The position numbers and the translations under genes were made by a program. Below are positions 10,341-45,798 of a stretch of 45,798 nucleotides of DNA, piece by piece. The stretch covers positions 1 through 45,798 of the forward strand of contig JAESRA010000155.1 in the NCBI GenBank assembly GCA_016764895.1, read 5' to 3'. The first letter of the stretch is position 1; every line of letters starts with the position of its first letter. The stretch comes from Phycisphaerales bacterium (lineage in GTDB: Bacteria > Planctomycetota > Phycisphaerae > Phycisphaerales > UBA1924). The notes beneath the pieces were generated by a model. It saw nothing but the letters and a program-made list of their open reading frames with translations, made no database searches and was not told the DNA's origin.

Positions 10341-10354
10341 ATGTCGGTAGGGTC

Positions 10355-11266: not shown

Positions 11267-11297
11267 GCTTGACTCCTTGGTTAAAAACGCTGTGAAA

Positions 11298-13598: not shown

Positions 13599-13612
13599 AG
13601 TGAATACCTCGT

Positions 13613-14479: not shown

Positions 14480-14514
14480 GATGGATTCCTTGTGTGTGTA
14501 ATCAGTTCAGCAGA

Positions 14515-15027: not shown

Positions 15028-15040
15028 TGAAATCTCCTTA

Positions 15041-15090
15041 GTTGCATGCGGTCGCATGCGGATGCATGCAGATGCAAGCGGATGCAAGTC
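15041..15090. repeat. Five tandem 10-bp units in the cheW leader
   Basis: The stretch reads as five 10-base units (GTTGCATGCG, GTCGCATGCG, GATGCATGCA, GATGCAAGCG, GATGCAAGTC). The first three contain the palindrome GCATGC (15044, 15054, 15064), so neighbouring units can pair as hairpins with four-base loops. The array starts 14 bases upstream of the cheW start codon, on the 5' side of its ribosome site. Confidence 0.9.
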
Positions 15091-15142
15091 TCTATCGTCG
15101 CCTCTGGGCCTTGAAGTAAGTTCGGTATCGTGATTTCCGTAT

Positions 15143-16285: not shown

Positions 16286-16371
16286 AACCGTACTCCTCTG
16301 GTCAAAGAATTTACATACCAGAGGCATCGAACCGATCGGGTGAAGGCTTTATGCGGGGATCATGGATCGTC

Positions 16372-23513: not shown

Positions 23514-23576
23514 GCAAAGATATTACGGACCAGACAGGTCCATTTGAACCCCATATTGGGGATACGGAGATTACTC

Positions 23577-24584
23577 GTGCGACACATCTTTATGCGATAC
23601 ATCTTTATCAGTGTGTTTCTGATCTTCCTGCTCTCGATGGTCGCTTTCAGCGCGACCTACACGGTCCGGTTCACAGAATCAGCCGTGAAGACCACCTTCG
23701 GCAAAGCAGGCGAGAACTCAATCGTCACCGAGCCCGGGTTCAAGTTCAAATGGCCCTTCCCGATCGAGTCGGTGACCAAGTACGACACCCGCACCCGAAT
23801 CGTCCAGGCTCGCTCTGAAACCCAGCAGACCGCCGACGACTTCCAGGTCATTGTCGAAGCGTTCTTGACCTACAAAGTCGTCGATCCGCTCAAGTTCTTC
23901 CGGAGTTTCTCAAACGCAGGCGATCGACCAATCGACCACTACATCAAAGCCGAAAACTCGGTTCTTCAGGACCTGCTGCGTTCATCACTCGGTGTGACCT
24001 CCAAGTTCTCCATCACCGATCTCTACTCCCCCATCTCCGGCGAATCAGCACTCCCAGAACTCGAGTCCCAAGTCTTTGCATTGCTCTCACAAGGCGGACA
24101 GGGCGGCAACCCTCTCAAAGATTACGGCATCGAAGTCACCTTCGTCGGAATCGACCGCATCGTCCTCCCAGAAGACGCCACCGACGCGGTCATCACACGC
24201 ATGGGCGCAAACCGCGACCGTCTCGCAGAACGCTACGAGTCCGAAGGCCGCTCCCAAGCGCGTGCCATCGAAGCCAAAGCAAGGTCCGATGCTGACAAGA
24301 TTCGTGCCTTTGCTCAGCGACGCGCCGACGAAATTCTCGCCAAGGGCGAGGCCGAAGCCGCACCATATCTCGCCCAGCAGAACATCAATCCAGAACTCGC
24401 GGTATTCATCCAAAACATCCGCCTCATGCGTGAATCCATGGCCAAAAAATTCACACTGATCTTCTCAACCTCAGACTACGGCATGCAACTCTTCGATCCC
24501 AACATCCTCCAAAATAGCCAGGGCAACCTGCCAGTCCCCCAGCAAGGCGACCGCTCGTTTGCTTCCTCGGGATCGGAGAACTGA
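23577..24584 (+). CDS. hflC: HflC-like SPFH protein
   Basis: An SPFH protein of 335 residues. The GTG at 23577 is chosen since GGAG lies seven bases upstream; a TTG at 23544 and an ATG at 23592 are alternatives. One N-terminal membrane segment (YIFISVFLIFLLSMVAFS) is followed by YTVRFTESAVKTTFGKAG and PGFKFKWPFPIESVTKYDTR, the HflC beginning. The long helix with ARAIEAKARSDADKIRAFAQ and RRADEILAKGEAEA and the C-terminal FTLIFSTSDYGMQLFDPN match HflC. It would assemble with the HflK-like proteins on either side. It lies 63 bp after the polytopic SPFH gene and 3 bp before the next. Confidence 0.9.
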   Translation: MRHIFMRYIFISVFLIFLLSMVAFSATYTVRFTESAVKTTFGKAGENSIVTEPGFKFKWPFPIESVTKYDTRTRIVQARSETQQTADDFQVIVEAFLTYKVVDPLKFFRSFSNAGDRPIDHYIKAENSVLQDLLRSSLGVTSKFSITDLYSPISGESALPELESQVFALLSQGGQGGNPLKDYGIEVTFVGIDRIVLPEDATDAVITRMGANRDRLAERYESEGRSQARAIEAKARSDADKIRAFAQRRADEILAKGEAEAAPYLAQQNINPELAVFIQNIRLMRESMAKKFTLIFSTSDYGMQLFDPNILQNSQGNLPVPQQGDRSFASSGSEN

Positions 24585-24587
24585 TCC

Positions 24588-26030
24588 ATGGCAGACAATG
24601 ACCACAACCTCGATGATCTGGTCAATGACCAAGATCAGGATCAATCAAATCCATCACCCCTCTCAAACCGGGCCGCCTCGGTTCGGCTCCGAGGCGGGCA
24701 GTCCGACCAAGACGCAAACGATATGGCACGGATGGACACCGCCAACGAATCGCTCGCCGACGCGCTCAAGATCACCTATGGCCTGCTCAAAGTCGCCATG
24801 ATCGTACTCGTTGGTCTGTTCACGATCTCCGGTGTTCAATCAATCAAAGAAGGCGAACGGGGCATTAGTGTCCGCTTCGGCAAGCAGGTCAGAACAAACC
24901 TTGAGCCCGGAATCCAATGGTCATTCCCCTATCCCATCGGCGAAATCGTCCGAGTTGGCGAGGGCGCTATCGAGATCGCCATCGCCAAAGAGTTCATGCC
25001 CAATATATCGGGCGATCAATCCGATGAAGCAGCCATGTCGCTCAACATCAGCCGCTTCAGTAATTCTGTCAAGCTCGATCCCGCGAGCGACGGCTCAAAC
25101 ATCACCTCCGATTTCAACATCGCCCACACACAATGGAGCGTGATCTACCGCCGGTCAGATCACGCGACCTATGTCTCCAACATCATCCCGTCACAAGAGC
25201 ACGCGATACTCAAGGCTGTGATTCAGCGGGCCGTTGTGCATGTGATCGCCACGATTAAAATCGACGATCTCCTCAAAAACTCATCAGAAGCCATCGCCGG
25301 CCGAGTCCGCTCGCTGACCCAGCAATCCCTCGACGATCTTGAGACAGGAATCTCGATCGACCGCGTAGTCCTCACCAGAAAAAACGCGGCCTTATCACTC
25401 AGAGCAAAGTTTAACTCCGTCCAAGCCGCAGCCCAAACCGCCGGCAAAGCCAGAGAAGACGCCCTCCTGCTCCGCGACCAAATGCTCAACGAAGTCGCAG
25501 GTTTCGGGAGCAAAGTGCTCATCGCTGAAATCAACGAATACGAACGCCTCATCGAACTGCAAATGACCAACGAGTCCGAAATCCAACTCGCCAGAATTGA
25601 CGCGATCCTCCAAGGCCATCAAGTCGAAATCGGCGGCGAAATGACAGGCTTACTGGTCTCAGGCGAAATTTCCGAACTACTAATCCAAGCACAATCCCAA
25701 TCGTCGAACCGCGTGAGCCTCGCGATCGCCCAACTCGAAAACTTCCGGTCCAAGCAAGCTCAATTCAAAGCCAACCCAAAGCTCATGATCGCTCGCGATT
25801 GGTCCTCTGCAATGAGCGAGTTCCTCGACAAAGACTTTGTCTCAACGATCGTGCTTCCAAGAGGCGTGAGTGCCGAAATACTAATCAACAACGACCCGGA
25901 CATCGCTCGTGAGATCGACCGGATGAGGAAACGCCGCGAGGCAGAGGGAACGATCGATCAACGCCGCGAAGATATGCGTCGATCATTCTTCAAAACCCAG
26001 CGCGGCCTCAAAGAACCAGAGGAACCCTAA
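24588..26030 (+). CDS. hflK: HflK-like SPFH protein
   Basis: An SPFH protein of 480 residues. It has a charged, Asp/Gln-rich N-terminal tail (about 60 residues), one membrane segment (VAMIVLVGLFTISGV, near residues 69-83), then the SPFH start SIKEGERGISVRFGKQV with LEPGIQWSFPYPIGEIVRVG. The middle includes RRSDHATYVSNIIPSQEHAI, and the long C-terminal helix region (SVQAAAQTAGKAREDALLLR) is as expected. A charged tail follows (EIDRMRKRREAEGTIDQRRE). Cytoplasmic tail and extracytoplasmic SPFH domain would match E. coli HflK topology. It starts 3 bp after the HflC stop, with GGAG about ten bases upstream. It is the third SPFH gene in a row. Confidence 0.88.
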   Translation: MADNDHNLDDLVNDQDQDQSNPSPLSNRAASVRLRGGQSDQDANDMARMDTANESLADALKITYGLLKVAMIVLVGLFTISGVQSIKEGERGISVRFGKQVRTNLEPGIQWSFPYPIGEIVRVGEGAIEIAIAKEFMPNISGDQSDEAAMSLNISRFSNSVKLDPASDGSNITSDFNIAHTQWSVIYRRSDHATYVSNIIPSQEHAILKAVIQRAVVHVIATIKIDDLLKNSSEAIAGRVRSLTQQSLDDLETGISIDRVVLTRKNAALSLRAKFNSVQAAAQTAGKAREDALLLRDQMLNEVAGFGSKVLIAEINEYERLIELQMTNESEIQLARIDAILQGHQVEIGGEMTGLLVSGEISELLIQAQSQSSNRVSLAIAQLENFRSKQAQFKANPKLMIARDWSSAMSEFLDKDFVSTIVLPRGVSAEILINNDPDIAREIDRMRKRREAEGTIDQRREDMRRSFFKTQRGLKEPEEP

Positions 26031-26032
26031 GC

Positions 26033-27382
26033 ATGTCCGTGGCGATGCCCGAATCGAATCACAGCACCAGTATCCAAGACGACACCCGTCGTCCAGTCGT
26101 TGCGTGCCAGCAGCTTACCAAAACATTCAAAGATTTCTGGATGCGTGACCAGGCGCGTGCAGTGGATAACCTGGATATGGTCATCCACGAACGAGAAATC
26201 TTCGGGCTCCTCGGTCCCAACGGCTCAGGCAAAAGCACGACCATCAAACTCATCCTCGGACTCCTCAAACCAACCAGCGGCCGCGTCATGGTCTTCGACA
26301 AACCAACCACACATGTCGCCACCAAAGCACGCATCGGATACCTCCCAGAAGAAAGCTACCTCTACCCCTTCCTCAACGCACGCGAAACACTCGACTACTA
26401 CGGCAAACTCTTCCGCCTCGACTCCAAAACCCGCAAGACCCGCATCGACGAACTCCTCGAAATGGTCGGGCTCGAACACGCACAGTTCCGTCCAGTCCGC
26501 GAATACTCCAAAGGAATGCAAAGGCGCATCGGCATCGCCCAAGCACTCATCAACGACCCAGACCTCCTGATCCTCGACGAACCCACCACCGGGCTCGATC
26601 CCATCGGCACCAAGCAGGTCAAAGACCTGATCCTCGAACTCGGACGCCGCGGAAAAACAATCATCCTCTCAAGCCATCTCCTCACCGATGTCGAAGATGT
26701 CGTCGATCGCATGGTCATCCTCTATGGCGGCAAAATTCGCAGAGAAGGCACCTGCGACGACCTGCTCTCCTCCAAAGAACGCACCTCAATTGAAACCGAC
26801 GAACTCGACGACGCAACCATCGCCGAGATCGACGAAGTCATCCGTCGCCGGTCATCAGGAAGCAAATCCATCCTCTCGGTCAGCTCGCCAAGACAGAAAC
26901 TCGAAGAACTCTTCCTCGGCATCGTCGAAGAAGCACAAGCACAACGCACCGCAACCTCAGGCGTCACCAAAGGCGGCGAAACCGCAGCCTTCCTAAGGTC
27001 CCAAGATGCACCCATCGCCGGCGATGCCCTCATCGACAGCCTGCTCGATTCCGGGTCAACACAAGAAACCTCATCTGATGGACAAACCGAACTGTCTGAG
27101 GCCAATGCTGTGGCCAACGAATCCGACACCGCCTCAAAAGAATCACAAACACAGGATGATGACGGCGTAATCAGCGCCCTTATGACAGCCCAAGACACTC
27201 CCGAAACTCAACCCAACGCGCAGACCAACACGCAGCCCAAAGCGCAATCCGGCACACAAACCGGCACACAATCCGCCGAGCCCGCCCAAAGCCAGCATCA
27301 GTCAAATGACGATGTGGACACCGGGATCATTGATTCTTTGCTCGATTCAGACGACAGTACCGACAATGAAACGGAGCGGTAA
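26033..27382 (+). CDS. ABC transporter ATP-binding protein with long repetitive C-terminal tail
   Basis: The ATPase of an ABC-2 type exporter, 449 residues. Walker A is GPNGSGKST (residues 61-69), signature YSKGMQRRIGIAQAL near 158, Walker B LLILDEPTTGLDP near 178, and the H-loop histidine is in IILSSHLLTDVEDV. About 300 residues make a normal CcmA/NatA-type subunit. The remaining 150 are an acidic, Gln/Thr/Ser-rich, probably disordered tail carrying three similar short motifs: DALIDSLLDSGS near 330, DGVISALMTAQD near 378 and DTGIIDSLLDSD near 428. ATG 2 bp after the HflK-like stop, and the TAA overlaps the next ATG by one base (TAATG), so translation of all three is coupled. Confidence 0.93.
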   Translation: MSVAMPESNHSTSIQDDTRRPVVACQQLTKTFKDFWMRDQARAVDNLDMVIHEREIFGLLGPNGSGKSTTIKLILGLLKPTSGRVMVFDKPTTHVATKARIGYLPEESYLYPFLNARETLDYYGKLFRLDSKTRKTRIDELLEMVGLEHAQFRPVREYSKGMQRRIGIAQALINDPDLLILDEPTTGLDPIGTKQVKDLILELGRRGKTIILSSHLLTDVEDVVDRMVILYGGKIRREGTCDDLLSSKERTSIETDELDDATIAEIDEVIRRRSSGSKSILSVSSPRQKLEELFLGIVEEAQAQRTATSGVTKGGETAAFLRSQDAPIAGDALIDSLLDSGSTQETSSDGQTELSEANAVANESDTASKESQTQDDDGVISALMTAQDTPETQPNAQTNTQPKAQSGTQTGTQSAEPAQSQHQSNDDVDTGIIDSLLDSDDSTDNETER

Positions 27383-34281: not shown

Positions 34282-34662
34282 ATGACAAACCAAGAATCAA
34301 CACCCTCCGACTGGTCCAAAACACCCGCGGCCATGGTCTCAACAGCCATCCTCGGAATCGCCTCAATCTCCGGCTTGATATGGTCAATGACCACCACCGC
34401 CGCAACACCAACAGTCCACACGCAACAAATTATAAAAACCGGCCAACCCCCACCCGCCAAGTTGCTAGTCAACATCAACACCGCAGGCACCAACCAGCTC
34501 CAACTCCTCCCCTCCATCGGCCCAAAACTTGCCCAACGAATCATCGACGACCGCACAGAAAATGGCCAATTTAAATCCCTCAAAGACCTCGACCGCGTCA
34601 AAGGCATCGGACCCAAAACCCTAAAACGCCTCGCCGATTGGGTCACCATCACCACACCCTGA
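34282..34662 (+). CDS. ComEA-like helix-hairpin-helix protein
   Basis: A short membrane-anchored protein, 126 residues from the ATG at 34282; an in-frame GTG at 34273 is an alternative. There is one membrane segment near residues 15-37 (MVSTAILGIASISGLIWSM), a Thr/Pro-rich linker, and a C-terminal double helix-hairpin-helix domain: VNINTAGTNQLQLLPSIGPK, then KLAQRIIDDRTENG and LDRVKGIGPKTLKRLADWV. Such domains bind DNA without sequence preference; ComEA-type proteins do so at the outer face of the membrane during DNA uptake. No other competence gene is nearby. It is 16 bp behind the GH10-like gene. Confidence 0.88.
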   Translation: MTNQESTPSDWSKTPAAMVSTAILGIASISGLIWSMTTTAATPTVHTQQIIKTGQPPPAKLLVNINTAGTNQLQLLPSIGPKLAQRIIDDRTENGQFKSLKDLDRVKGIGPKTLKRLADWVTITTP

Positions 34663-34775
34663 CCCACATTCCCGGATATGCTCTCAACAACCCAAACCAA
34701 CCCCATCGGGCGGCTTCAACACAGCCATCCGAGTACACCCGTGCGCGCACTGAAAAAAACAACCACTCAGTATAC

Positions 34776-37700
34776 ATGAACCTCCTCGACCCCATCCAAC
34801 TCAACCCAAACTTCAGAACCCTCGCAAAGGCAATGGATTCAGGAGGCCGCGTCGTCGCAACAGGATCCAGCGGCTGCTCCGTCGCCCTCATCGCCCTGGC
34901 TCTCCACCAACGAACAAAGCGTTCAGTCGTCATCGTCTGCGCCCACCTTGACGAAGCCGAAGACCTCCACGCCGAAATCAGCACCCTCGATCCAAAAGCC
35001 TCGACACTCTTCCCCGCCATGGAACTCTCCCCAGGCGAAACCAGTATCTCCGCCGACCTCTTCACTCAGCGACTCTTGATCGCCCGCGACATCGAAGCTG
35101 GCAACACATCGGGCATCATCATCGCCCCAATCGCCGCACTCATGCAACCCATCCCCGCACCGGGTCGCAGCGAATCACTCATCCGAGAACTCGCCGCCGG
35201 CGACTCCATCGACCCCTCCGAACTCATCCAATGGCTCTCAAACCACGGCTACGAACGCAACGACACCATCGAATCCCCAGGACAATTCGCACTCCGAGGC
35301 GGCATCCTCGATATCTTCCCATCAACCGGCGGCGGACTCGACGGAAGTAATAGTGGGGGATCAATCCCACTCCGCCTCGACTTCTTCGGCGACGAACTCG
35401 AAACCATCTCCGAAATCGACCTCGACACCATGGGCTCAGACCGCAAAGTCACCGCCGCCAAACTCGCCGCAATGGGTGAAAAATACCTCGAAGAATCCTC
35501 CGACGACCAATCCTTCCTTCAATCAATCCCACAAGAATCCCTCATCCTCATCGCCGAAACATTCGAAGTCGTCGAGCAAGGCCGAGGCTACTTTGAACGC
35601 GTCCACGACGGCCGAACAATCTTCGGCCCACCCGCCGTCCTCAAACTCCTCGAAACCAGATTCCACGCACTCGCCGAGCTCAACCAATTCTCAGCAGGCA
35701 AAGCCGGAGCCGACACCCTCGTCGCCCTCCCCGTCGAGCCCGTCCCACCCTTCGACCGCGAGAGCAGCCAAGCCATCAAAGAACTCGGCGAACTCGCAAC
35801 CCAGGTTGGCCGAGTAATTCTCACCTGCACCTCCGACGGCGAGTTCGCCCGACTCGGAGAACTCCTCTCCATCCACGCCCGCGGCGCGCCCATCGAGCGA
35901 GAGATCATCGACATCCGCCGCGGCTTCATCTGGCGCACCCATGATCCCGATACCGACAAACCAACCGGATTCGCCATCGTCCCATCGGGCGAACTCCTGC
36001 ACCGATCAAGCGTCCGCCGCCGGGTTTCCAAAATCCGCGCCGGCCGCGCAATGGACACCTTCCTCGACATCCAAGAAGGCGACTATGTCGTCCACGCCGA
36101 CCACGGCATCGCCAAATTCACAGGCCTCACAATCCTCAACGCCTCAGGCACCGCCAAACACAAACAACAACTCGGCAAACCACCAAAGAAACACAAAGAA
36201 GACCAAGAAGAGTACCTCACCCTTGAATTCAAGGGCAAAAGCCGCATCCATGTCCCATGCTCCCAGATCGACCTCGTCCAAAAATATGTCGGCGGCTTCG
36301 CAGGCAAACCCCCGCTCAGTTCCATCGGTGGCAAAAAATGGAAAGCCCAAAAACAAAAAGTAGTCGAATCCGTCAAAGACCTCGCAAGTGAAATGCTCAG
36401 AGTCCGCGCCGCCCGCGAGCACCTGACCGGGTTCCAATATCCCGGCGACTCCCAAATGTTCAAAGACTTCGAAGCCGAGTTCCCCTACGACGAAACCGAA
36501 GACCAAATCTCCGCACTCCTCGAAATCAAAAAAGACATGGCCTCATCCCGCCCAATGGACCGCCTCATCTGCGGCGATGTCGGCTTCGGAAAAACCGAAC
36601 TCGCCATCCGCGCCGCCTTCAGAGTCGTCGAATCCGGAAGGCAAGTCGCCATCCTCGTCCCCACAACCGTCCTTGCAGAACAACACGAACGCACCTTCAA
36701 ACAACGCTACGCCGACTACCCATTCCGAATCGAATCTCTTTCACGCTTCAAAACCAAGAAAGAAATCAAACGCACCCTCGAAGACCTCAAACTTGGGAGA
36801 GTCGACATCGTCGTCGGCACCCATCGTATTCTTTCAAAAGATGTCATCTTCAACGACCTAGGCATGGTCGTCATCGACGAAGAACAACGCTTCGGCGTCG
36901 AACACAAAGAACGCCTCATCCAACTCCGCATGACCGTCGATGTCATGACCCTCAGCGCAACACCCATCCCAAGAACCCTCCACATGTCCATGCTTGGTCT
37001 CCGCGATATTTCCAGTTTGACCACGCCCCCCGTAGACCGAAGAGCCATCGTCACCGAGGTCATCCCCTACAACAAACACCGCATCCAAAGGGCCATCGAG
37101 CGTGAACTCGCCCGCGAAGGGCAAGTGTTTTATGTCCATAACCGCGTATCCAACATCGAGTCCATCGCCGCCGATGTCCGCGCCCTGGTCCCCGGCGCAA
37201 AGGTCATCTTCGGCCACGGCCAAATGGAATCGAGCCAACTCGAAGAAGTCATGCTCAAGTTCATGCGCCGCCAAGCAGACATCCTCGTCTCCACAACCAT
37301 CATCGAATCCGGCATCGACATCCCCACCGCAAACACCATGATCATCAACGACGCCGACCGCTTCGGCCTCTCAGAACTCCACCAACTCCGAGGCCGAGTC
37401 GGTCGTTCCCACCACCGCGCCTACTGCTACCTCCTGCTCCCCGAAGACCGCACCGTCAAAGAAGTCGCCCAAAAACGCCTCAAAGCCATCGAAGAATATT
37501 CCATGCTCGGCGCCGGATTCAAAATCGCCATGCGCGATCTCGAAATCCGCGGCGCAGGCAATCTCCTAGGCGCAGAACAATCCGGCCACATCGCATCAGT
37601 CGGATACGAAATGTACTGCCAACTCCTCGACCAAACCGTCGAACGCCTCAACGACTCAACAATCCAAGACCAAATCACCCACACCAGCGTCGACATCGGC

Positions 37701-38156
37701 CTCATCGGCTACATTCCAAAAAATTACATCCCATCAGACGCGCGGCGTATCGAAGTCTACCGACGACTCGCAATGGCCAGATCACAAAATGAAATCGACC
37801 GCGTCGTCCAAGACTTAACAAGCGCCTACACCAAACCCCCCGAACTCACCCGCCGCCTCATCATGGGCGCTCGCGTCCGCGCCTCCTATCAAGCCCTCAG
37901 CGTCCGCGCCCTGGGCGTCCGAGGCAGCGACATCATCTTCCTCACCGCCGACCCAAACAAACTCGCAACCATACTTGCAAAATCACCCGCCAATACTCGC
38001 GTGATCACAGCCGATCTCGCCCAGACCAACGCCAAAACCGCCGCAGGCCAAAGCTACGCCGAAGTCTATGTCCGACCTGTCGAAGCCCTGCATTCACCCA
38101 TGGCCATCGCCAAAGCCCTCGTCGAGTGGGCACAGCAAACCCCAATGGCAGGCTAA
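34776..38156 (+). CDS. mfd: Transcription-repair coupling factor Mfd
   Basis: An ATP-dependent translocase that removes RNA polymerase stalled at DNA damage and recruits UvrA; 1126 residues from the ATG at 34776. The N-terminal UvrB-like module runs to about 400. The RNA-polymerase-interacting (CarD-like) domain starts at EGDYVVHADHGIAKFTGL (434). The translocase motor has Walker A GDVGFGKTE (599), the DEEQ box VVIDEEQRFG (701), LSATPIPRTLHMSMLGLRD, and motif VI DRFGLSELHQLRGRVGRS (853). The C-terminal TRCF domain starts near 965. A frame extension to 34638 (starting GHHHHTLTH) would overlap the comEA-like gene and is rejected. Codon use is extreme: third positions are mostly C or A. Confidence 0.97.
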   Translation: MNLLDPIQLNPNFRTLAKAMDSGGRVVATGSSGCSVALIALALHQRTKRSVVIVCAHLDEAEDLHAEISTLDPKASTLFPAMELSPGETSISADLFTQRLLIARDIEAGNTSGIIIAPIAALMQPIPAPGRSESLIRELAAGDSIDPSELIQWLSNHGYERNDTIESPGQFALRGGILDIFPSTGGGLDGSNSGGSIPLRLDFFGDELETISEIDLDTMGSDRKVTAAKLAAMGEKYLEESSDDQSFLQSIPQESLILIAETFEVVEQGRGYFERVHDGRTIFGPPAVLKLLETRFHALAELNQFSAGKAGADTLVALPVEPVPPFDRESSQAIKELGELATQVGRVILTCTSDGEFARLGELLSIHARGAPIEREIIDIRRGFIWRTHDPDTDKPTGFAIVPSGELLHRSSVRRRVSKIRAGRAMDTFLDIQEGDYVVHADHGIAKFTGLTILNASGTAKHKQQLGKPPKKHKEDQEEYLTLEFKGKSRIHVPCSQIDLVQKYVGGFAGKPPLSSIGGKKWKAQKQKVVESVKDLASEMLRVRAAREHLTGFQYPGDSQMFKDFEAEFPYDETEDQISALLEIKKDMASSRPMDRLICGDVGFGKTELAIRAAFRVVESGRQVAILVPTTVLAEQHERTFKQRYADYPFRIESLSRFKTKKEIKRTLEDLKLGRVDIVVGTHRILSKDVIFNDLGMVVIDEEQRFGVEHKERLIQLRMTVDVMTLSATPIPRTLHMSMLGLRDISSLTTPPVDRRAIVTEVIPYNKHRIQRAIERELAREGQVFYVHNRVSNIESIAADVRALVPGAKVIFGHGQMESSQLEEVMLKFMRRQADILVSTTIIESGIDIPTANTMIINDADRFGLSELHQLRGRVGRSHHRAYCYLLLPEDRTVKEVAQKRLKAIEEYSMLGAGFKIAMRDLEIRGAGNLLGAEQSGHIASVGYEMYCQLLDQTVERLNDSTIQDQITHTSVDIGLIGYIPKNYIPSDARRIEVYRRLAMARSQNEIDRVVQDLTSAYTKPPELTRRLIMGARVRASYQALSVRALGVRGSDIIFLTADPNKLATILAKSPANTRVITADLAQTNAKTAAGQSYAEVYVRPVEALHSPMAIAKALVEWAQQTPMAG

Positions 38157-38198: not shown

Positions 38199-38230
38199 TT
38201 GACACAAAAACCCACCAGTTCCGATATACT
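38199..38230 (+). promoter_or_regulatory. Possible promoter of the PhoU-like gene
   Basis: TTGACA (38199-38204) matches the -35 consensus exactly and TATACT (38225-38230) matches the -10 at five of six. The 20-bp spacer is longer than the usual 17; using GATATA as -10 makes it 18. The message would have a leader of about 25 bases with AAGGA before the ATG. Confidence 0.5.
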
Positions 38231-38261
38231 ACACAGTCAACAATCCACTTCAAGGACGAAC

Positions 38262-38999
38262 ATGCACAACGACCCAGAACATACATCAGCCGAATTCGAT
38301 TCATCACCATTGACCTCGACCGACATCTCGCTCGACGACGACCTATCCCAGGTCCGCCGCCGCATGATCAGCGAGGCCGCCCAAGCCATCGAGATTGTCA
38401 AATCCGCAATCGACTCGCTCTGGGAACTCGATGAATCGACCGCTTCGATGATCTCAAAGATCGAAAATGAGATCGACAAAGAAGAGGTTGAAATCGAGCA
38501 GGAATGCTACCGGATCCTCGCGCTCAAAAACCCATTCGCTGCCGACTTCCGGCTCCTCACCTTCATCCTTCGCGTCAACACCGATATCGAACGCGTCGCC
38601 GACCACGCCTCATCAATCCGCAAGATCATCGCCCGCATCCAAGCCCCCACACCACAATGGCCAGAATCACTCCGAGAAATGGGCCAGCGCATCCCCGTAA
38701 TGTGTGATCAACTCTTACGCGCCGTCGTCAACACCGACGCCGAACTCGCAAGATCAGTCGTCAAACAAGACCGCGCCATCGACAAACTCGACGGCCAAGC
38801 CTTCGACGAAATCACACTGCTCATCAAAAGCGACCCCACAAAAGCCTCAAACTATCTATTAATCTACCGAGTCGCCCGCGAACTCGAACGCGTCGGCGAC
38901 CTCCTGGGCAACATCGCCGAAGGCGTCATCTACCTCGTCACAGGCGACATCGTCCGCCACACGCCAAAAATAAAGAGAAATAATCCAACAACTTCATAA
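38262..38999 (+). CDS. phoU: PhoU-like phosphate regulatory protein
   Basis: A cytoplasmic helical protein of 245 residues from the ATG at 38262 (MHNDPEHTSAEF), which has AAGGA upstream; an earlier frame start at 38199 lies on the proposed promoter. It has two PhoU three-helix bundles with the family pattern: LILALKNPFAADFRLLTF is seen here as ILALKNPFAADFRLLTFILR, then RVNTDIERVADHASSIRKI; second copy TKASNYLLIYRVARELERVG with DLLGNIAEGVIYLVTGDIVR. In other bacteria PhoU couples the PstSCAB transporter to the PhoR kinase. No pst or phoR gene is in the window. The 105 bp behind mfd contain its own promoter, so it is likely a separate unit. Confidence 0.92.
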   Translation: MHNDPEHTSAEFDSSPLTSTDISLDDDLSQVRRRMISEAAQAIEIVKSAIDSLWELDESTASMISKIENEIDKEEVEIEQECYRILALKNPFAADFRLLTFILRVNTDIERVADHASSIRKIIARIQAPTPQWPESLREMGQRIPVMCDQLLRAVVNTDAELARSVVKQDRAIDKLDGQAFDEITLLIKSDPTKASNYLLIYRVARELERVGDLLGNIAEGVIYLVTGDIVRHTPKIKRNNPTTS

Positions 39000-39017: not shown

Positions 39018-40667
39018 ATGCCCGTCCTCATCATGACATTCGGGAGTATCTTTACCTTGATCGGGTTAGTACTCTTGGTCAGGGCGATCTTCGGGCACCA
39101 AATTTCGGATCATCCGTTCTGCCGAGCGTGTCGGTATGACTTGATCGGACTGGACATCTCCTCACCAACCCCCTGCCCCGAGTGCGGGGCCGCCGTGGTC
39201 ATTAACACGCGATCCATCATCAAAGGCCAACGCCAAACCCGCCTCTGGCTTCTGCCCATCGCTCTTGTCATCATGCTCGTCGGCTCAGTGGGGATTGGAT
39301 ACACATCAATCAAACGACACCCATCACTCGAATATATCGATTGGCATGGTATCTATGAGCAGTCTTCCGAACCCACATTGCGTTTGTATGAAGCCCTAAA
39401 CGATGAGGACGCTGCCCATGAACTCTGGCGGCGCATGACCAAAGGCAAGATTTCCGACAAGGGACTCAGAATCCTCATCGACCGGGCGATCAAGCACATC
39501 GCCGATCCCTCCGCCGTGTACGACTACCGATGGGGCGGCGTGCTGCTCTATGCACTCTACGATAACCAACTCACCGATCAAGAACGCACCACATTCATCG
39601 AGGGATCCGTCACTTCAAAGATTCATCTGCACGCCTTGCAGAGCAACGACTCAGACACCACTTATGCCGTCATCTCCCACCACGGCGTCGAACGCTTCAT
39701 GGGCTCATGGATGACCACCATCCCGCTCCAACTCAAAGACCGACCCGTCAACAGCATGCGAGCCACATCCGACTTCCGTATCGTGTGCACCCCCCAAATA
39801 TTGGCCATCAACGGCAAACCATTGCCCAATCAAGAAAAATGGGCGAGCACCTCAAATGATTGGGCGGCCATCAACACCGAGTTCGCCACCAGCCGCATCC
39901 ATATCCCCTTCCCCATTGATCAGCAGGTACTCGATGCAACAATCGCCATCAACTATGTTCTTATGCAGAACGATACTCTGGTCCATACCTGGCAGCAGAC
40001 CATCAACACATCCATCCAACGAGCAACTGGCCCCGTTGAGCATGCCCAGCACATCGAAGACCCCGCGATCATCAATCCGATCCTGAGCAATCTGAACATT
40101 GGAATGGTGGTTGTCCCGACCCAGACCGATCTTGCGAGGCAAGCAGATACACGCCGCGGCGTCCGACCAGCGCTTTCCATTCAATCAACCAAGCTCTTTG
40201 ATCACAAACTCCTCGGCGACATCCGATTCCGAATCGGAGACCACCAAATCCCGTACCAATCCATCGAATGGAACCCCCAACCCCGCATTACTTCTCCAAG
40301 GAATCGCGGAAGGTCAATCTGCTATGTTTCAGGTTGGGGATGGAGCGGATCGAGCGAGTTCGATGAAACCCTCGCATACTTCGATCAGCACCATTCCTTC
40401 TGGGAAGAGGCACTCCAAGTCGGAAAGGTCGATGTTCTCATCATCCCCAATCTGAAGATGGCCGAGCAGAACCCAAGGATCACCTCATTCATCAACCGCC
40501 CGATCATCTTCAAAGATGTCCCAGTTTCACCGTTGGTCCCCCGCATCATCACACGGACAAGCAGTCTCACGGGTAAATCGGTCGAGGTCTTGCGATGGAG
40601 TCCTCAGAACTCGCCAACAACAACCCGCTCCCAACCAATCACCGCAGCATTCCTTGATATGGATTGA
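39018..40667 (+). CDS. Zinc-ribbon membrane protein, array copy 1
   Basis: A protein of 549 residues. Plan: TM1 (residues 6-24), zinc ribbon with Cys35/Cys38 and Cys53/Cys56 (FCRACRYDLIGLDISSPTPC, then PECG), a basic stretch, TM2 (about 76-97), then a 450-residue extracytoplasmic part. Positive charges beside the ribbon suggest it faces the cytoplasm. The extracytoplasmic part shares with the other three copies a segment with YDYRWGGVLLYALYDNQLTD and a C-terminal motif NLKMAEQNPRI followed by IFKDVPV. It is the most diverged copy and has a longer helical N-terminal part of the outer domain. Starts 18 bp after the PhoU-like gene. Family unnamed; function unknown. Confidence 0.82.
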   Translation: MPVLIMTFGSIFTLIGLVLLVRAIFGHQISDHPFCRACRYDLIGLDISSPTPCPECGAAVVINTRSIIKGQRQTRLWLLPIALVIMLVGSVGIGYTSIKRHPSLEYIDWHGIYEQSSEPTLRLYEALNDEDAAHELWRRMTKGKISDKGLRILIDRAIKHIADPSAVYDYRWGGVLLYALYDNQLTDQERTTFIEGSVTSKIHLHALQSNDSDTTYAVISHHGVERFMGSWMTTIPLQLKDRPVNSMRATSDFRIVCTPQILAINGKPLPNQEKWASTSNDWAAINTEFATSRIHIPFPIDQQVLDATIAINYVLMQNDTLVHTWQQTINTSIQRATGPVEHAQHIEDPAIINPILSNLNIGMVVVPTQTDLARQADTRRGVRPALSIQSTKLFDHKLLGDIRFRIGDHQIPYQSIEWNPQPRITSPRNRGRSICYVSGWGWSGSSEFDETLAYFDQHHSFWEEALQVGKVDVLIIPNLKMAEQNPRITSFINRPIIFKDVPVSPLVPRIITRTSSLTGKSVEVLRWSPQNSPTTTRSQPITAAFLDMD

Positions 40668-40672
40668 TCTGG

Positions 40673-40678
40673 TATACT
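40673..40678 (+). promoter_or_regulatory. Extended -10 box seven bases before the ATG of array copy 2
   Basis: TGGTATACTG contains TATACT at 40673-40678 preceded by TGG, an extended -10. Seven bases separate it from the ATG at 40686, so transcription would start at or next to the A of the ATG. No Shine-Dalgarno site fits in the 18-bp gap behind copy 1. Confidence 0.6.
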
Positions 40679-40685
40679 GAGCAAC

Positions 40686-42206
40686 ATGATTATCATCGGC
40701 ATTGCGTTCTTCGTCATTGGCTTACTCATGCTCCTCTTTGCCTGGCGCGGACGCATCTTCGCCCAAGGTCAGTTCTGCCGAAAATGCAAGTTCGACCTCG
40801 AAGGTTCTCCAATAGACACCCAAGGCAACAAATGCCCTGAATGTGGCCAACCCATCCACACCCAATCCTCCCGCCGAATCACCCTCCGCCGAAGCTCCCG
40901 GCTCGGGCTGACACTTGCCATTGTGCTCATGGCAAGCGGTATCGCCGCTCTCTGGCTTGGTTCATCTGGAAAAACAAGCATTTTCTTCGGTTTTCTACCA
41001 GACTCAACAATCCTCTGGCTCTCCGAACAAGGGGTTGACGAAGCACTCGATGAACTGGCTGGCCGTATTACTTCGACAACGAATCCCATCCCCGCAGAGT
41101 TTCATATCCGCGCGATCGAGCTTGCTTTGGTGCATCAAGCCGACACCTCGCAGCCATGGAACCCACGCTGGGGCGAAGTGCTCTCCCTGTCGTTCGGCAA
41201 TCCCATCATGACCGACGACCAAATGAAGCAGTATGTCAGGAATGGCACAAATATGAGTGCCCAGATCCGCAACCGCGTACGCCAAGGGGCCGATGCAGTC
41301 GATATCACCGTCACCTCATCTCCAGGACGAATCTCAGCCCAGAACCACAACGAGACCGGGTACTGGATACAAACGCAACTCGTCCGATCGGGCGTGGTGG
41401 GGGACAAGCCACGAAAGTTCTATGGGGATGACCAATCCATGCACAACTTCTATATTCCCAAACACGGGAGTAGTTCCTCATCTCCCTACAGGAACACAAT
41501 CAATCCGTTCGGAACCGGATTTGACAGAGAACCCGGATCGCAAGTCCAGGTCTATGTGGAGTACGAACTGGTGATCCGAGGCCTCGGCCTCGGCGTGGTC
41601 GGAGAATATCGAACCGAGCAATCCATTCTTATCATTGCCCAAGACGAGGATGTCGTTTCGACATTCAAAGACCCAGAGTTGGCCCAAAAATTCTGCGATT
41701 CAATCCAGATTTCACCCGTACGAATACTCAAGAATATCCCAGAACCAACATCAAACTTTGGGATAAGGGCTCTCGGAATACGACTGAAATTCGACGGCAT
41801 CCTCGCATCCGTCGCAATGCAACCGTTCTTGCGTTTTGATGACGGCGAACTCATCGAATTAAACAATAACTGGACCCAGCAAGGACCAAATCCAGCGTTG
41901 AAAGGGAGCGGTGCTTATTTGGCGGCCACCTATTACGACGCCGCGATGTACGAGCGGGTAGCGATCATCACCCAACGCATCATCGACCAAGGACACATTG
42001 ACATCGTTTTCAAAACGGACGCCTCTCTTGCCGAATGGAAACCAGGGATCGACCGAGTCCTGGATTTCACACTGGTCTTTGAAAACATCCCAATCGAAGT
42101 CTACGAGGAGGAAGACACGATCAAGTTCTTTCCAATAACCAAGACGCTGCGAGAGCTTGAGTGGATCGAGCATGGATGCACGGAGGATCATACAGCAGGC
42201 CCATGA
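40686..42206 (+). CDS. Zinc-ribbon membrane protein, array copy 2
   Basis: A protein of 506 residues with the array plan: TM1 (residues 1-20, MIIIGIAFFVIGLLMLLFAW), zinc ribbon Cys31/Cys34 and Cys50/Cys53 (FCRKCKFDLEGSPIDTQGNK, then CPECG), basic RRITLRRSSR, TM2 (about 77-97), large outer domain. Shared elements are SQPWNPRWGEVLSLSFGNPI and, near the C-terminus, TDASLAEWKPGIDRVLD with LVFENIPIEV. The ribbon-coding DNA is nearly identical to that of copy 3, while the outer domains are strongly diverged. No ribosome site precedes the ATG; a -10 box seven bases upstream suggests a leaderless message. Confidence 0.85.
   Translation: MIIIGIAFFVIGLLMLLFAWRGRIFAQGQFCRKCKFDLEGSPIDTQGNKCPECGQPIHTQSSRRITLRRSSRLGLTLAIVLMASGIAALWLGSSGKTSIFFGFLPDSTILWLSEQGVDEALDELAGRITSTTNPIPAEFHIRAIELALVHQADTSQPWNPRWGEVLSLSFGNPIMTDDQMKQYVRNGTNMSAQIRNRVRQGADAVDITVTSSPGRISAQNHNETGYWIQTQLVRSGVVGDKPRKFYGDDQSMHNFYIPKHGSSSSSPYRNTINPFGTGFDREPGSQVQVYVEYELVIRGLGLGVVGEYRTEQSILIIAQDEDVVSTFKDPELAQKFCDSIQISPVRILKNIPEPTSNFGIRALGIRLKFDGILASVAMQPFLRFDDGELIELNNNWTQQGPNPALKGSGAYLAATYYDAAMYERVAIITQRIIDQGHIDIVFKTDASLAEWKPGIDRVLDFTLVFENIPIEVYEEEDTIKFFPITKTLRELEWIEHGCTEDHTAGP
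40770..40894 (+). repeat. 125-bp zinc-ribbon repeat, copy A
   Basis: From CAGTTCTGCCG to CTCCGCCGAAG this stretch aligns without gaps to 42347-42471. By eye I count eight differences in 125 bases (about 94% identity), four of them in one short cluster. It covers the zinc ribbon and the basic segment before TM2. Confidence 0.9.
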
Positions 42207-42249
42207 GCCGATAGATTCACAGTCAAGTTCTCCAAGAGCAATAACTTGG

Positions 42250-42255
42250 TATACT
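42250..42255 (+). promoter_or_regulatory. Extended -10 box seven bases before the ATG of array copy 3
   Basis: TGGTATACTG again, with TATACT at 42250-42255 and exactly seven bases to the ATG at 42263. Sequence and spacing repeat those before copy 2, although the two flanking gene ends differ. No ribosome site is visible. Confidence 0.6.
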
Positions 42256-42262
42256 GCTCATC

Positions 42263-43798
42263 ATGATCATTATTGGAATCGCACTACTCGCTTTCAGCAT
42301 GTTCTTGCTCATATTCGCCTGGCGAGGACGCATCGTTGGCCGAGGCCAGTTCTGCCGAAAATGCAAGTTCGACCTCACCGGCTCTCCAATAGACACCCAA
42401 GGCAACAAATGCCCAGAGTGCGGCCAACCCATCCACACCCAATCCTCCCGCCGAACCACCCTCCGCCGAAGTTCCAAACCCGGGCTCATCGTCGTTGCAT
42501 TTCTCCTATTGGCAGGTCTTACCACCACAGGTATTGGAATCACCGGCAACTCCGCAGCCGTCTACGCCAAAATGCCCGATGGCATCATCGTTCGCCTTTC
42601 TACTATTGGTTCAGGTGGTGCGCTCGATGAACTGGTCAATCGGCTTACCCGTGTCCCCCCGCTAAGCAATGCTCACTGGGATCGACTTATTGACTACGCG
42701 CTCAAAATCCAAGCCGACCCACAGGCCCCATGGAAGCCCGTGATCGGCGAAATCCTCGCTGATGCTTGGATCACCAATCGACTGACCGACGAGCAAATCA
42801 ATCAGTATCTCGATCATGCACTGGACATCCAATTCTTGATGCGTGACCGGGCAGTCCGCGGCTCAACAGAAATACAGTTGACAACCCGGATGACACCAGC
42901 CAGAATCCATTCCCTCAATGGAACCCAAAGCGGCTATTCACTCAAAATTGGCATCGTGAGTTCTTCGATCGGAAAAGAACCCACTCGGCCATATCGACCC
43001 GATGGCAAGACCCTTTGGATATCACATACCGAGATCAACATTCCAAACACCTACTCAAACTGGAGCTATTCAAACGCGGTGGACATTCGTTCGATTGCCA
43101 AAGAAATATCCGCTCAGCCAGGGACAGATTTGCCAATCACGGTCAATGTTGAACTTGCGTTGGTTCCCTCTTCATTGACTTCCAACGGCAACACCGATGA
43201 CACCACCCGATACTACAAAGCCATCACCATCAATAAATCTATCCGAATCCTTGAAGAAGGTACACCTTTGGTCGATACGAAGTCCGACCCATTGAGCATC
43301 CAAAATCTCAAAGAACAATACACAATCTCGGCAATCCGTATGCTCGCCGAATTGGACCCGGATCGAAAAAGTTGGACTCCGATCCTGGGCTTTTCGATAA
43401 TGATCAACGAGGGACTTTCCGACTCGCTGGCTTTTCGCGCGTTCTTGAGGGTCACCGATGGAGCCCAGAGCCAAGAGATCGAAATCGCAAAGGTGATCCA
43501 CGAGCAAACCAACAGCAGAGGTTCCCATGGCACCGCGATCTCCTGGCGGGTGGACCCCGACGATCCCGAAAAATCCAAGCAAGCAGCCGACATAGTGGCC
43601 ATGCTCAAAAAAATTGGTAAAGCAGACATTATTTTACGCTCAGATCCAACGATCGCTGAGGGAAATCCCACGATTGATTCCATCCTCGACACCACATTGG
43701 TCTTTCGTGATGTATCGATCAACCTCGTCGATACCTATGGCAAGATCTGGATGACGACGCTCAATGAGCGACAATGGCATGCATCAAATGAAGATTAG
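42263..43798 (+). CDS. Zinc-ribbon membrane protein, array copy 3
   Basis: A protein of 511 residues, closest in its first 70 residues to copy 2: TM1 (MIIIGIALLAFSMFLLIFAW), Cys31/Cys34 and Cys50/Cys53 in FCRKCKFDLTGSPIDTQGNK plus CPECG, basic RRTTLRRSSK, TM2 (about 76-96). The outer domain has PQAPWKPVIGEILADAWITN and near the end SDPTIAEGNPTIDSILD with LVFRDVSINL, the C-terminal family motif. Unlike the other copies, its PW motif is followed by KPVIGE rather than an RWG. Intergenic gap to copy 2 is 56 bp. Function unknown; a membrane sensor with a cytoplasmic zinc ribbon is a guess from topology. Confidence 0.85.
   Translation: MIIIGIALLAFSMFLLIFAWRGRIVGRGQFCRKCKFDLTGSPIDTQGNKCPECGQPIHTQSSRRTTLRRSSKPGLIVVAFLLLAGLTTTGIGITGNSAAVYAKMPDGIIVRLSTIGSGGALDELVNRLTRVPPLSNAHWDRLIDYALKIQADPQAPWKPVIGEILADAWITNRLTDEQINQYLDHALDIQFLMRDRAVRGSTEIQLTTRMTPARIHSLNGTQSGYSLKIGIVSSSIGKEPTRPYRPDGKTLWISHTEINIPNTYSNWSYSNAVDIRSIAKEISAQPGTDLPITVNVELALVPSSLTSNGNTDDTTRYYKAITINKSIRILEEGTPLVDTKSDPLSIQNLKEQYTISAIRMLAELDPDRKSWTPILGFSIMINEGLSDSLAFRAFLRVTDGAQSQEIEIAKVIHEQTNSRGSHGTAISWRVDPDDPEKSKQAADIVAMLKKIGKADIILRSDPTIAEGNPTIDSILDTTLVFRDVSINLVDTYGKIWMTTLNERQWHASNED
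42347..42471 (+). repeat. 125-bp zinc-ribbon repeat, copy B
   Basis: Partner of 40770-40894 at a constant offset of 1577 bases with no insertion or deletion. Identity includes most synonymous positions, which is unexpected given how far the rest of the two genes has diverged. Confidence 0.9.
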
Positions 43799-43800
43799 CG

Positions 43801-43806
43801 TACAAT
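43801..43806 (+). promoter_or_regulatory. Possible -10 box eight bases before the ATG of array copy 4
   Basis: TACAAT at 43801-43806 lies eight bases before the ATG at 43815, in the 16-bp gap behind copy 3. It is not preceded by TGn and no -35 box is clear, so it is weaker than the boxes before copies 2 and 3. Confidence 0.35.
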
Positions 43807-43814
43807 AAGCTCCC

Positions 43815-45389
43815 ATGATGACGACAAACCTCTTCACCATCCTTGTATTTTCAATCGTCTCAGCATTGATGGGCCTCTTCCTCCTCCGCATCGCCATCCG
43901 AGGCAAACTCATCTCCCCAAACCCGCACTGCCGCAAGTGCAAGTTTGATCTCGCCGGCCTCAACCTCGCCGACCCAACCCCCTGCCCCGAATGCGGCACC
44001 ATCCTCCGCACAAACACCCCCGCCATCACCACAGGCCTCCGCAAGATCCGAAAACTCGCCCTCCTGGCCTCAATCCTCTTCCTCCTGACCGCCGCCACCG
44101 GATTCGCCTGGCCCAAACTCTCCACACTCCCCTCGATCCAGAACATCAACATCTACAACCACTTCCCCGAACCCCTCCTGACCAAACTCGCCACCACCGG
44201 CGATACCAACGCCCTCCAAACCCTCCACGACCGCCTCATCCCAGGCGATGTCACTGACCAAGCCCTCCAAAAACTCATCACCCACGCCTTCACCCTCCAA
44301 GCCGACGAATCAGTCCCCTGGGACAAGCGGTGGGGCGATGTGATTGTGTATGCGATGTATGTTGACCTTTTGGATAGTGAAACGATCGGAAAGATAGCCG
44401 AGGATTCAATGGAGCAATACATGGTCGCTCACGAAAGAATCGGCCCTGATTCGGACATGTTGCTCTATCAAATCAAGGGTCGAGAAACAAGGGGGGTTGG
44501 GAACCGTCAGTTTCGGCTGAGTTTATATGATGGGCACGAAACGCACTGGGACCTAGACATCAGGATTTTCGGAGCAATTACAGATGATTCAAAGATCAAT
44601 CGGTACGGCTCTATGGGGACAGGATTAAACTATTGGTACCCATTCCAGAGCATTGGAGCGATGACTACAAACGCCCCAATCCCTGTCGGGAAGGACCATA
44701 TTGTCTTTCGAATCCCCATCGAATATGTACTCTCAGAGAATGGCGAAGAAAGACACCGATGGAGTGTGGAACTCAGGCATGAAGTCGTGCGTCTAGGTTC
44801 AGAACCGGAATACATCGAAGTTGAAACCAATCAAGCAGTTGGGTCCGATGTTATCGAAGGGTTGTTCATTTCAGAGTTGATGGTCCCCACAGATGTCGTC
44901 GAGATGGCAAAGCACAACTCGATTAAAAGTACCACTTTCTTATTTGCAACAATTGAAAATCCGATAGCCGAGGATCTTTCATTGATGGGCACAATCCACT
45001 ATCGAATCGATGACCAAGAAATTGCCGGACAATCAATTATTGCGTTTCTTGATTCTCAATACTGTCTTGGAATAGGACCGCAATATTCTGGCGGCGAATC
45101 CGGCTGGCTCAAGCCATACATCGATCAGATCGAGTTTTGGGAGCGGGCTGTTCAGCGAGGCAAGATTGATGTGGTGTATCGTCCTGATCCATCTCTTGCT
45201 GAGATGAATCCTGGGCACAAAAAAATACTCGGAATCCCCTTCATATTCAAAGATGTACCGGTCAAGGGCTTGATCCCAGAGCAGGTTTCAACAAATCGTG
45301 CTGGCGTTGAAGGGATGGAGTGGAGATACATCAACAGATTCTCAAACCCCGCCCCACCCAAGACAGGGGCCGAGGCACTGGATGAATGA
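43815..45389 (+). CDS. Zinc-ribbon membrane protein, array copy 4
   Basis: A protein of 524 residues. TM1 (residues 6-26), zinc ribbon Cys39/Cys42 and Cys57/Cys60 (HCRKCKFDLAGLNLADPTPC, then PECG), basic linker, TM2 (about 76-95), outer domain. Shared elements are SVPWDKRWGDVIVYAMYVDL and the C-terminal DPSLAEMNPGHKKILGIPFI with FKDVPVKGL. The ribbon spacing (14 residues between CxxC pairs) matches copy 1, not copies 2 and 3 (15). Base composition changes inside the gene near 44320: in the 37 codons before it none ends in G, in the next 20 nine do. The last gene before the 16S rRNA, which faces it. Confidence 0.84.
   Translation: MMTTNLFTILVFSIVSALMGLFLLRIAIRGKLISPNPHCRKCKFDLAGLNLADPTPCPECGTILRTNTPAITTGLRKIRKLALLASILFLLTAATGFAWPKLSTLPSIQNINIYNHFPEPLLTKLATTGDTNALQTLHDRLIPGDVTDQALQKLITHAFTLQADESVPWDKRWGDVIVYAMYVDLLDSETIGKIAEDSMEQYMVAHERIGPDSDMLLYQIKGRETRGVGNRQFRLSLYDGHETHWDLDIRIFGAITDDSKINRYGSMGTGLNYWYPFQSIGAMTTNAPIPVGKDHIVFRIPIEYVLSENGEERHRWSVELRHEVVRLGSEPEYIEVETNQAVGSDVIEGLFISELMVPTDVVEMAKHNSIKSTTFLFATIENPIAEDLSLMGTIHYRIDDQEIAGQSIIAFLDSQYCLGIGPQYSGGESGWLKPYIDQIEFWERAVQRGKIDVVYRPDPSLAEMNPGHKKILGIPFIFKDVPVKGLIPEQVSTNRAGVEGMEWRYINRFSNPAPPKTGAEALDE

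Positions 45390-45798
<409 letters not shown>

What the first reader, a model, noticed from the sequence alone, without database searches (positions are those of the whole stretch)
39018..45389. Tandem array of four zinc-ribbon membrane proteins with a large outer domain
Seen: four consecutive genes share TM1, CxxC-X14/15-CxxC ribbon, basic stretch, TM2, and an outer domain with a PW..RWG..L segment and a C-terminal (S/T)(L/I/M)AExNP...(V/I)FKDVP-type motif. Positive charges put the ribbon in the cytoplasm. Inference: a family of one-piece membrane sensors or a lineage-specific expansion; no function is known to me.
Basis: partly seen in the sequence, partly recalled or inferred. Interest (0 to 1): 0.65.

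Follow-up and report, generated by a model that had tools for sequence, protein, structure and literature searches.

The report
Tandem membrane proteins with zinc ribbons
Four neighbouring genes of an uncultured planctomycete encode related membrane proteins that share a small zinc-ribbon-like segment inside the cell but carry strongly diverged outer domains of no named family; what they do is unknown, and relatives form similar gene clusters in other members of the class.

Summary
In detail: four tandem genes (39018-45389, +) share TM1, a C4 ribbon, a basic loop, TM2 and a large outer region. The quoted outer motifs are only partly conserved. AlphaFold models of proteins 3 and 4 (mean pLDDT 88.6 and 84.2) show a small helical domain plus two beta-sandwiches. 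Profiles of the two outer-domain types align at 99.9% probability, so this is one family. No Pfam or NCBIfam cut-off is reached; fold matches are common sandwich folds only.

Outer-domain hits were seen only in Phycisphaerae. In the window's genus the array lies between phoU and a convergent 16S gene, with 0 to 5 intact copies. Five other lineages hold separately clustering tandem arrays. Orthologous copies are under purifying selection, with dN/dS 2-3 times that of phoU and mfd. The ribbon codons of gene 2 look overwritten from gene 3 while the outer domains stay apart: constant inside, variable outside. In this genome 20 of 22 proteins with such a ribbon have predicted TM helices.

Best reading (inferred): envelope proteins that work like TcaA, with a ribbon docking a shared cytosolic partner and outer domains binding different things. 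New variant of a known kind; function untested.

The parts
39018..40667 (+). array gene 1 (type A): TM1, C4 ribbon (codons 39120-39185), TM2, outer domain
40686..42206 (+). array gene 2 (type B); ribbon codons 40776-40844; ortholog in G005
42263..43798 (+). array gene 3 (type B); ribbon codons 42353-42421; ortholog in G007
43815..45389 (+). array gene 4 (type A); ribbon codons 43929-43994; ortholog in G007
40781..40893 (+). gene-conversion-like tract in gene 2 covering ribbon and basic loop; matching stretch of gene 3 is 42358-42470
   Evidence: 26 of 27 informative sites favour the neighbouring paralog against 78 of 676 elsewhere; 240-nt repeat, 82%, spacing 1577
42551..42820 (+). gene 3 helical domain (residues 97-186) with the W..RWG segment region
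   Evidence: model
42821..43252 (+). gene 3 beta-sandwich 1 (residues 187-330)
43319..43732 (+). gene 3 beta-sandwich 2 (residues 353-490), ending in the A-E-x-x-P...F motif
44130..44408 (+). gene 4 helical domain (residues 106-198)
   Evidence: model
44409..45329 (+). gene 4 two beta-sandwiches (residues 199-505)
38199..38999 (+). phoU, conserved upstream neighbour in the genus
34638..38156 (+). mfd, upstream of phoU
45713..45798 (-). 3' end of a convergent 16S rRNA gene that bounds the array

Best explanation
The array encodes a family of inner-membrane envelope proteins with a constant cytosolic side and a variable outer side. TM1 and TM2 form a hairpin that holds a 49-62 residue basic loop with a C4 ribbon in the cytoplasm. 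The outer part (helical domain, then two beta-sandwiches) reaches into the periplasm. Inferred mechanism: the ribbon binds zinc and docks one shared cytosolic partner or surface, while each paralog's outer domain binds a different envelope or external ligand, so the tandem set gives the cell several outer specificities on one inner connector. It would work like the Firmicute TcaA / Llmg_0524 type of zinc-ribbon membrane protein, which affects cell-wall integrity. Shown by computation: architecture, topology by charge, homology, independent tandem expansions, purifying selection, one conversion tract over the ribbon. Not shown: zinc binding, the partner, the ligands, any phenotype.
For: Topology: loop net positive in 63 of 63 kept proteins. 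Four Cys and G61 invariant and RG (29, 30) and R76 at 89% or more of 63 sequences, while few outer positions are. Models of proteins 3 and 4, pLDDT 88.6 and 84.2, same element order. Outer domains homologous: probability 99.9 (type A vs B), 99.2 and 99.2 (each vs the G029 array). Copies are old and kept: each of genes 2, 3 and 4 has a closer ortholog in another genome than any paralog, gene 1 stands alone; dN/dS 0.175-0.295 in 9 of 9 ortholog pairs against 0.083-0.096 for 4 phoU/mfd pairs. Separate tandem clusters in G029, G190, G256, G162 and the g20 genomes. Ribbon tract of gene 2 resembles gene 3 (88% nt) more than its ortholog (78%), while its outer part does the reverse (45% vs 85%); same-residue codons inside the tract are identical in 32 of 37 cases to the paralog and 14 of 28 to the ortholog, outside it 55 of 135 and 274 of 368; 0 of 10000 permutations reach it. 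Ribbon proteins of this genome are membrane proteins in 20 of 22 cases. Analogy: Llmg_0524 (2 TM) and Llmg_0526 (1 TM) bind zinc through two CX2C pairs, have a cytosolic N-terminus, and loss or change of Llmg_0524 affects cell-wall integrity (PMC4628341, abstract and passages); TcaA is predicted with an inside zinc finger and most of its chain outside and affects wall teichoic acid (PMC10328498, passages).
Against: No partner, ligand or phenotype is known. No signalling gene accompanies the window array, and neighbours of other arrays differ (transporters, purine gene, FTR). A conversion tract can follow from high local similarity alone. It is clear in one pair: of 134 triplets tested 13 had 0 of 1000 permutations, and only 5 of these touch the TM-ribbon-basic-loop segment, 8 lie elsewhere. 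dN/dS of the outer part is not consistently above that of the TM-ribbon part, so diversifying selection is not shown. Two of 21 same-genus genomes have the locus without any copy, so the proteins are not essential.
Confidence: 0.4

Rival explanations
1. The ribbon is only a structural and topogenic element: zinc folds the loop between the two helices and holds it inside, and the proteins are envelope scaffolds or surface binders with no cytosolic partner.
For: In L. lactis the Cys-zinc complex was very stable and the authors suggest a role in protein stability (PMC4628341 abstract). The ribbon sits at N-terminal, internal or C-terminal places of otherwise unrelated membrane proteins, which suits a generic stabiliser. 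No conserved gene partner next to arrays.
Against: The RG before the ribbon and R76 after it are conserved beyond the cysteines, more than folding alone seems to need. The count of ribbon strings differs strongly between lineages of the class, which a simple stabiliser does not predict.
Confidence: 0.33
2. A diversifying recognition system (adhesion, self/non-self or phage-exposed surface proteins) whose copy number turns over by birth and death.
For: Copy number 0 to 5 intact at one site in a genus, one copy split into two frames in G015 (L045:5707-7351); outer domains 19-42% identical within arrays; sandwich folds resembling RbmA, alpha-2-macroglobulin and transglutaminase C-terminal domains.
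Against: No PADLOC hit at E up to 1; no relatives in the phage, plasmid or viral collections; dN/dS well below 1 in every pair; orthologs traceable between species.
Confidence: 0.17
3. One-piece transmembrane regulators like zinc anti-sigma factors, releasing a transcription factor on outer signals.
For: Cytosolic zinc-type domain plus TM plus outer domain in one chain.
Against: The motif is CxxC-CPECG, not the HxxxCxxC of zf-HC2 (recalled definition); no zf-HC2 hit; the window array's neighbours are mfd, phoU and 16S rRNA, no sigma factor.
Confidence: 0.05

Closest known systems
TcaA of Staphylococcus aureus (PMC10328498; passages)
   Same: Predicted zinc finger inside, membrane span, most of the chain outside; envelope role.
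   Different: One membrane span with the finger N-terminal to it; here the ribbon lies between two spans. No TcaA family appears among Pfam matches of the 30 members. No tandem arrays are known to me.
Llmg_0524 and Llmg_0526 of Lactococcus lactis (PMC4628341; abstract and passages)
   Same: Two CX2C pairs, 2 or 1 TM, two such genes in one operon, zinc bound by the cysteines, cytosolic N-terminus.
   Different: CX2CX10CX2C instead of X14/15; ribbon N-terminal rather than in a loop; no sequence comparison with these proteins was made here.
Pfam zinc-ribbon models (DZR PF12773, C1_1 PF00130)
   Same: DZR is the commonest weak Pfam match: 16 of 30 members at E <= 0.1.
   Different: Best scores stay below the cut-offs: C1_1 18.8 bits against 26.5, DZR 16.7 against 27.3.
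Common beta-sandwich folds: factor XIII / protein 4.2 C-terminal domains, RbmA, alpha-2-macroglobulin-type domains
   Same: Sandwich 1 superposes at Z 6.4 (rmsd 3.4, 109 residues, 5mhl_B) for protein 3 and Z 7.2 (rmsd 3.0, 97 residues, 8cs9_X) for protein 4.
   Different: Z below 8 means a common arrangement only; 6-13% identity in the top rows; no functional site carried over.

Membership tests
TcaA-like zinc-ribbon membrane proteins | cytosolic four-Cys zinc-type domain | tested here: met
   Four invariant Cys, net positive loop in 63 of 63 kept proteins; zinc itself not tested
TcaA-like zinc-ribbon membrane proteins | single membrane span after an N-terminal ribbon | tested here: not met
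   Ribbon lies between two hydrophobic segments in all four
TcaA-like zinc-ribbon membrane proteins | sequence match to TcaA family models | tested here: inconclusive
   None among the 20 Pfam families matched at E <= 0.1 by 30 members; which TcaA models the library holds was not checked
Zinc anti-sigma factors (ZAS) | HxxxCxxC zf-HC2 motif (recalled) | tested here: not met
   CxxC...CPECG in all four; no zf-HC2 among Pfam matches
Zinc anti-sigma factors (ZAS) | sigma factor gene next door | tested here: not met
   Window neighbours are mfd, phoU and 16S rRNA; neighbours of other arrays were only partly identified
Llmg_0524-type zinc membrane proteins | zinc bound by the CX2C pairs | not testable with these tools
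   needs purified loop and metal analysis
Own family (TM-ribbon-TM plus helical plus two sandwiches) | homologous outer domain | tested here: met
   hhalign probability 99.9, E 4.8e-32 between types A and B; 99.2 to the G029 array
Known structural family of the outer domain | clear fold match in the PDB | tested here: inconclusive
   Best Z 6.4 and 7.2, none at 8 or more; the helical domain was not searched alone
Anti-phage defence protein | PADLOC model match | tested here: not met
   0 families at E <= 1 for four proteins

The most novel reading that the evidence does not exclude
Phycisphaerae use one ribbon type (CxxC-x-Y/F-x-L-x-G-L...CPECG) as a dedicated module of membrane proteins, a docking tag for one common cytosolic partner or membrane site, spread over tens of proteins per genome. 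The tandem arrays are its variable-outer-domain branch: the inside tag is kept alike between neighbouring paralogs by gene conversion while the outside diversifies, an architecture like constant and variable regions.
Probability: 0.22. Interest if true: 0.8.

Novelty: new variant of a known kind. Interest (0 to 1): 0.55.

Why it matters
It defines an unnamed, fast-evolving membrane protein family with a predicted fold, a clear topology and a recurrent tandem organisation in a poorly studied bacterial class. If the constant-inside, variable-outside reading is right, it is a compact way for a bacterium to own several outer specificities on one inner connector. The wider ribbon module points to a class-wide feature of Phycisphaerae membranes that can be tested in one cultured strain. 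Because the ribbon is short and recognisable, a single pull-down could place dozens of hypothetical proteins at once.

Tried and rejected
Recent local duplication in this genome: rejected; genes 2, 3 and 4 have closer orthologs in other genomes than among their own neighbours. Mobile or phage origin: no relative in the viral, plasmid or phage collections. Known domain: Pfam, NCBIfam, PHROGs and PADLOC gave nothing at cut-off; the best PHROG E was 0.03. Sequence search of solved structures: outer-domain profile, best E 0.22, two designed proteins. TM-ribbon profile: E 1.9e-15 to a designed C2H2 finger protein and weaker matches to other C2H2 fingers, most of them over profile positions around the CPECG string only; read as a shared short string, not homology. 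Solved-structure Foldseek gave E down to 9.8e-08 but TM-scores of 0.15 to 0.17 on the whole model. Viral fold search: E 2.2e-06 at best with TM-scores near 0.15. Diversifying selection on the outer domain: not supported by pairwise dN/dS; one row of that call (phoU G014/G018, 22% identity) was a wrong frame and is not used. Phosphate role from the phoU neighbour: not general, since the mapped arrays of other families lie beside other genes. Promoter and terminator scan: as many sites as in shuffles. TM enrichment of ribbon proteins: with the looser TM threshold 17 of 28 other window ORFs also get a TM call, so I quote the stricter one; the 95 comparison ORFs include repeated orthologs and shadow ORFs, so the p-value is only a guide. 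The paralog G000:C110 matches the outer profile only over 84 helical columns (probability 35, E 4e-4): left open. The TM-ribbon profile gave three weak hits outside the class (E 2.7e-4 to 9.3e-4), not counted as family. Literature searches showed no paper on this family in their listings; the library lacks most subscription papers.
Full report
Observation. Four + strand ORFs at 39018-40667, 40686-42206, 42263-43798 and 43815-45389 each encode TM1, a C4 ribbon, a basic loop, TM2 and about 415-455 outer residues. Spacing of the CxxC pairs is 14 or 15 as reported. The outer motifs are weaker than stated: PW..RWG is complete in proteins 2 and 4 only, and the C-terminal motif is A-E, P and a later F as invariant columns.

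Topology. In 63 family proteins from 21 genomes, kept because both hydrophobic segments flank the ribbon, the loop has median net charge +7 and is positive in 63 of 63; the N-tail has median charge 0 and the first 40 residues after TM2 have median -1. This supports a cytosolic ribbon and an outer C-terminal part. Thirty-three of 63 outer parts have 0 or 1 cysteine, while the loop has at least four in each.

Structure. AlphaFold on alignments of window proteins and loci of named records (30 rows) gave pLDDT 84.2, pTM 0.68 for protein 4 and 88.6, 0.73 for protein 3. Both show TM1, a strand, the ribbon, a strand, TM2, a run of short helices and then two beta-sandwiches. Fold comparison finds common sandwich folds only: best Z 6.4 for protein 3 and 7.2 for protein 4, 0 of 996 and 0 of 992 chains at Z 8 or more. 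The helical domain was not searched alone.

One family. Profiles of type A (proteins 1 and 4 with orthologs) and type B (proteins 2 and 3 with orthologs) outer domains align over 362 columns at probability 99.9, E 4.8e-32. Each aligns to the seven-copy array of G029 at 99.2.

Distribution. Protein 4 finds relatives in 36 of 61 near genomes. A full-length profile matches 132 of 298 genomes of the class at E <= 1e-5, only 5 candidates per genome being scored, and many of these matches cover the TM-ribbon part only. Among the listed rows of that truncated table, nine genomes outside the order match out to profile position 475 or beyond (G176, G085, G195, G286, G232, G203, G303, G192, G077; the last from position 273 on). 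An outer-domain profile over 392 genomes of the phylum hits 9, all of the same order. Named relatives are 12 loci, all MAGs titled Phycisphaerales, Phycisphaerae or Planctomycetota. There are none in viral contigs, plasmids or phages.

Locus. In 16 of 21 same-genus genomes, the window included, a family gene follows this phoU; it is directly adjacent in 15 and separated by one methyltransferase-like gene in G020. A convergent 16S gene bounds the array in the four array loci scanned (window, L044, L045, L048) and lies next to phoU without any array in G002 and G016. In G003 and G010 the contig ends soon after phoU, and in G008 no close phoU ortholog was found, so these three are undetermined. 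Intact copies per locus range from 0 (G002, G016) to 5 (G014, and G015 with one further copy split into two frames); several contigs end in the array, so some counts are minima.

Evolution. In trees of 62 and 82 rows genes 2, 3 and 4 pair with copies in other genomes (gene 2 with G005, 3 and 4 with G007), gene 1 stands alone, and the genus copies form one side of a 99-supported branch. In the larger tree the arrays of G029 (95), G190 (98), G256 (91), G162 (100) and the three g20 genomes (95) form their own groups, so tandem sets arose repeatedly. Nine ortholog pairs have dN/dS 0.175-0.295; four phoU or mfd pairs have 0.083-0.096. The genes are functional and evolve under weaker constraint; positive selection is not shown.

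Constant inside, variable outside. Between genes 2 and 3 the ribbon segment is 88% identical in DNA and the outer part 45%; between gene 2 and its G005 ortholog the figures are 78% and 85%. Of informative sites at window 40781-40893, 26 of 27 favour the paralog, against 78 of 676 elsewhere; same-residue codons agree with the paralog in 32 of 37 cases inside the tract and 55 of 135 outside, and with the ortholog in 14 of 28 and 274 of 368; no shuffle of 10000 reaches it. The repeat finder sees the same as a 240-nt, 82% repeat. Gene 3 and its G007 ortholog share that ribbon type (94%), which suggests transfer from gene 3 to gene 2. Over 134 triplets 13 tests had 0 of 1000 permutations, 5 of them touching the ribbon segment and 8 elsewhere, so the ribbon is favoured but not exclusive.

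A wider module. The CPECG codon string occurs 26 times in the genome, 0 for the control. It lies in 24 distinct proteins, 22 with a full ribbon, 20 of these 22 with a predicted TM; at the stricter threshold 20 of 95 other ORFs have one (Fisher p 1.2e-9, with a redundant comparison set). Ribbons lie at the N-terminus, inside or at the C-terminus. In relative G126 131 strings occur; of the first 30 places 26 hold distinct full-ribbon proteins, 23 with TM, and some form tandem runs of 166-179-residue proteins. In the class draw counts run from 0 to 131, 10-62 in nine of nine genomes of the window's family. In the phylum draw 115 genomes outside that family have 0-14, and of 30 places in other genomes 7 are full ribbons, 2 of them with a TM.

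Mechanism. I think it most likely that these are envelope proteins working like TcaA and Llmg_0524: ribbon inside, binding domain outside. For Llmg_0524 and Llmg_0526 zinc binding and topology were shown by experiment and a cell-wall role was suggested for Llmg_0524 (PMC4628341, abstract and passages). For TcaA the topology is an AlphaFold prediction and a wall teichoic acid role was shown (PMC10328498, passages). Membership in either group is not claimed: the two-span hairpin differs. The shared partner for the ribbon is an inference from its conservation, the conversion tract and its reuse in other membrane proteins.

Novelty. No paper on the family appeared in eight searches of the open-access library (listings only). 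The outer domain is an unnamed family; the ribbon-TM-outer-domain plan is a known kind. I rate it a new variant of a known kind.

Noticed in passing
G126 loci L226:846-2945, L224, L223, L225: Tandem runs of small membrane proteins each with a C- or N-terminal CxxC...CPECG ribbon; the genome has 131 CPECG codon strings.
   Followed up: partly
G000 contigs C2, C25, C38, C51, C75, C129, C145, C190, C191, C252 and others (loci L137-L162): Many other membrane proteins of the window's genome carry the same ribbon type at different places of the chain.
   Followed up: partly
L073:769-2175 (G000:C110): 469-residue protein with several TMs, the ribbon and a possible relative of the helical domain (weak match).
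   Followed up: partly
L045:5707-7351 (G015): An array copy split into two reading frames beside phoU, a likely decaying copy.
   Followed up: no
G256 loci L131:2074-6631: Family members with a much longer spacing (about 31 residues) between the two Cys pairs.
   Followed up: no
window 23544-27382 (+): Two adjacent Band_7/SPFH genes followed by an ABC ATPase gene.
   Followed up: no
window 8716-16327 (-): FapA-like gene near a chemotaxis cluster with cheA (11298-13598) and cheB (15143-16327).
   Followed up: no
window 45713-45798 (-); L044, L045, L048, L120, L121: A 16S rRNA gene convergent to the array; no 23S was reported in the stretches scanned.
   Followed up: partly
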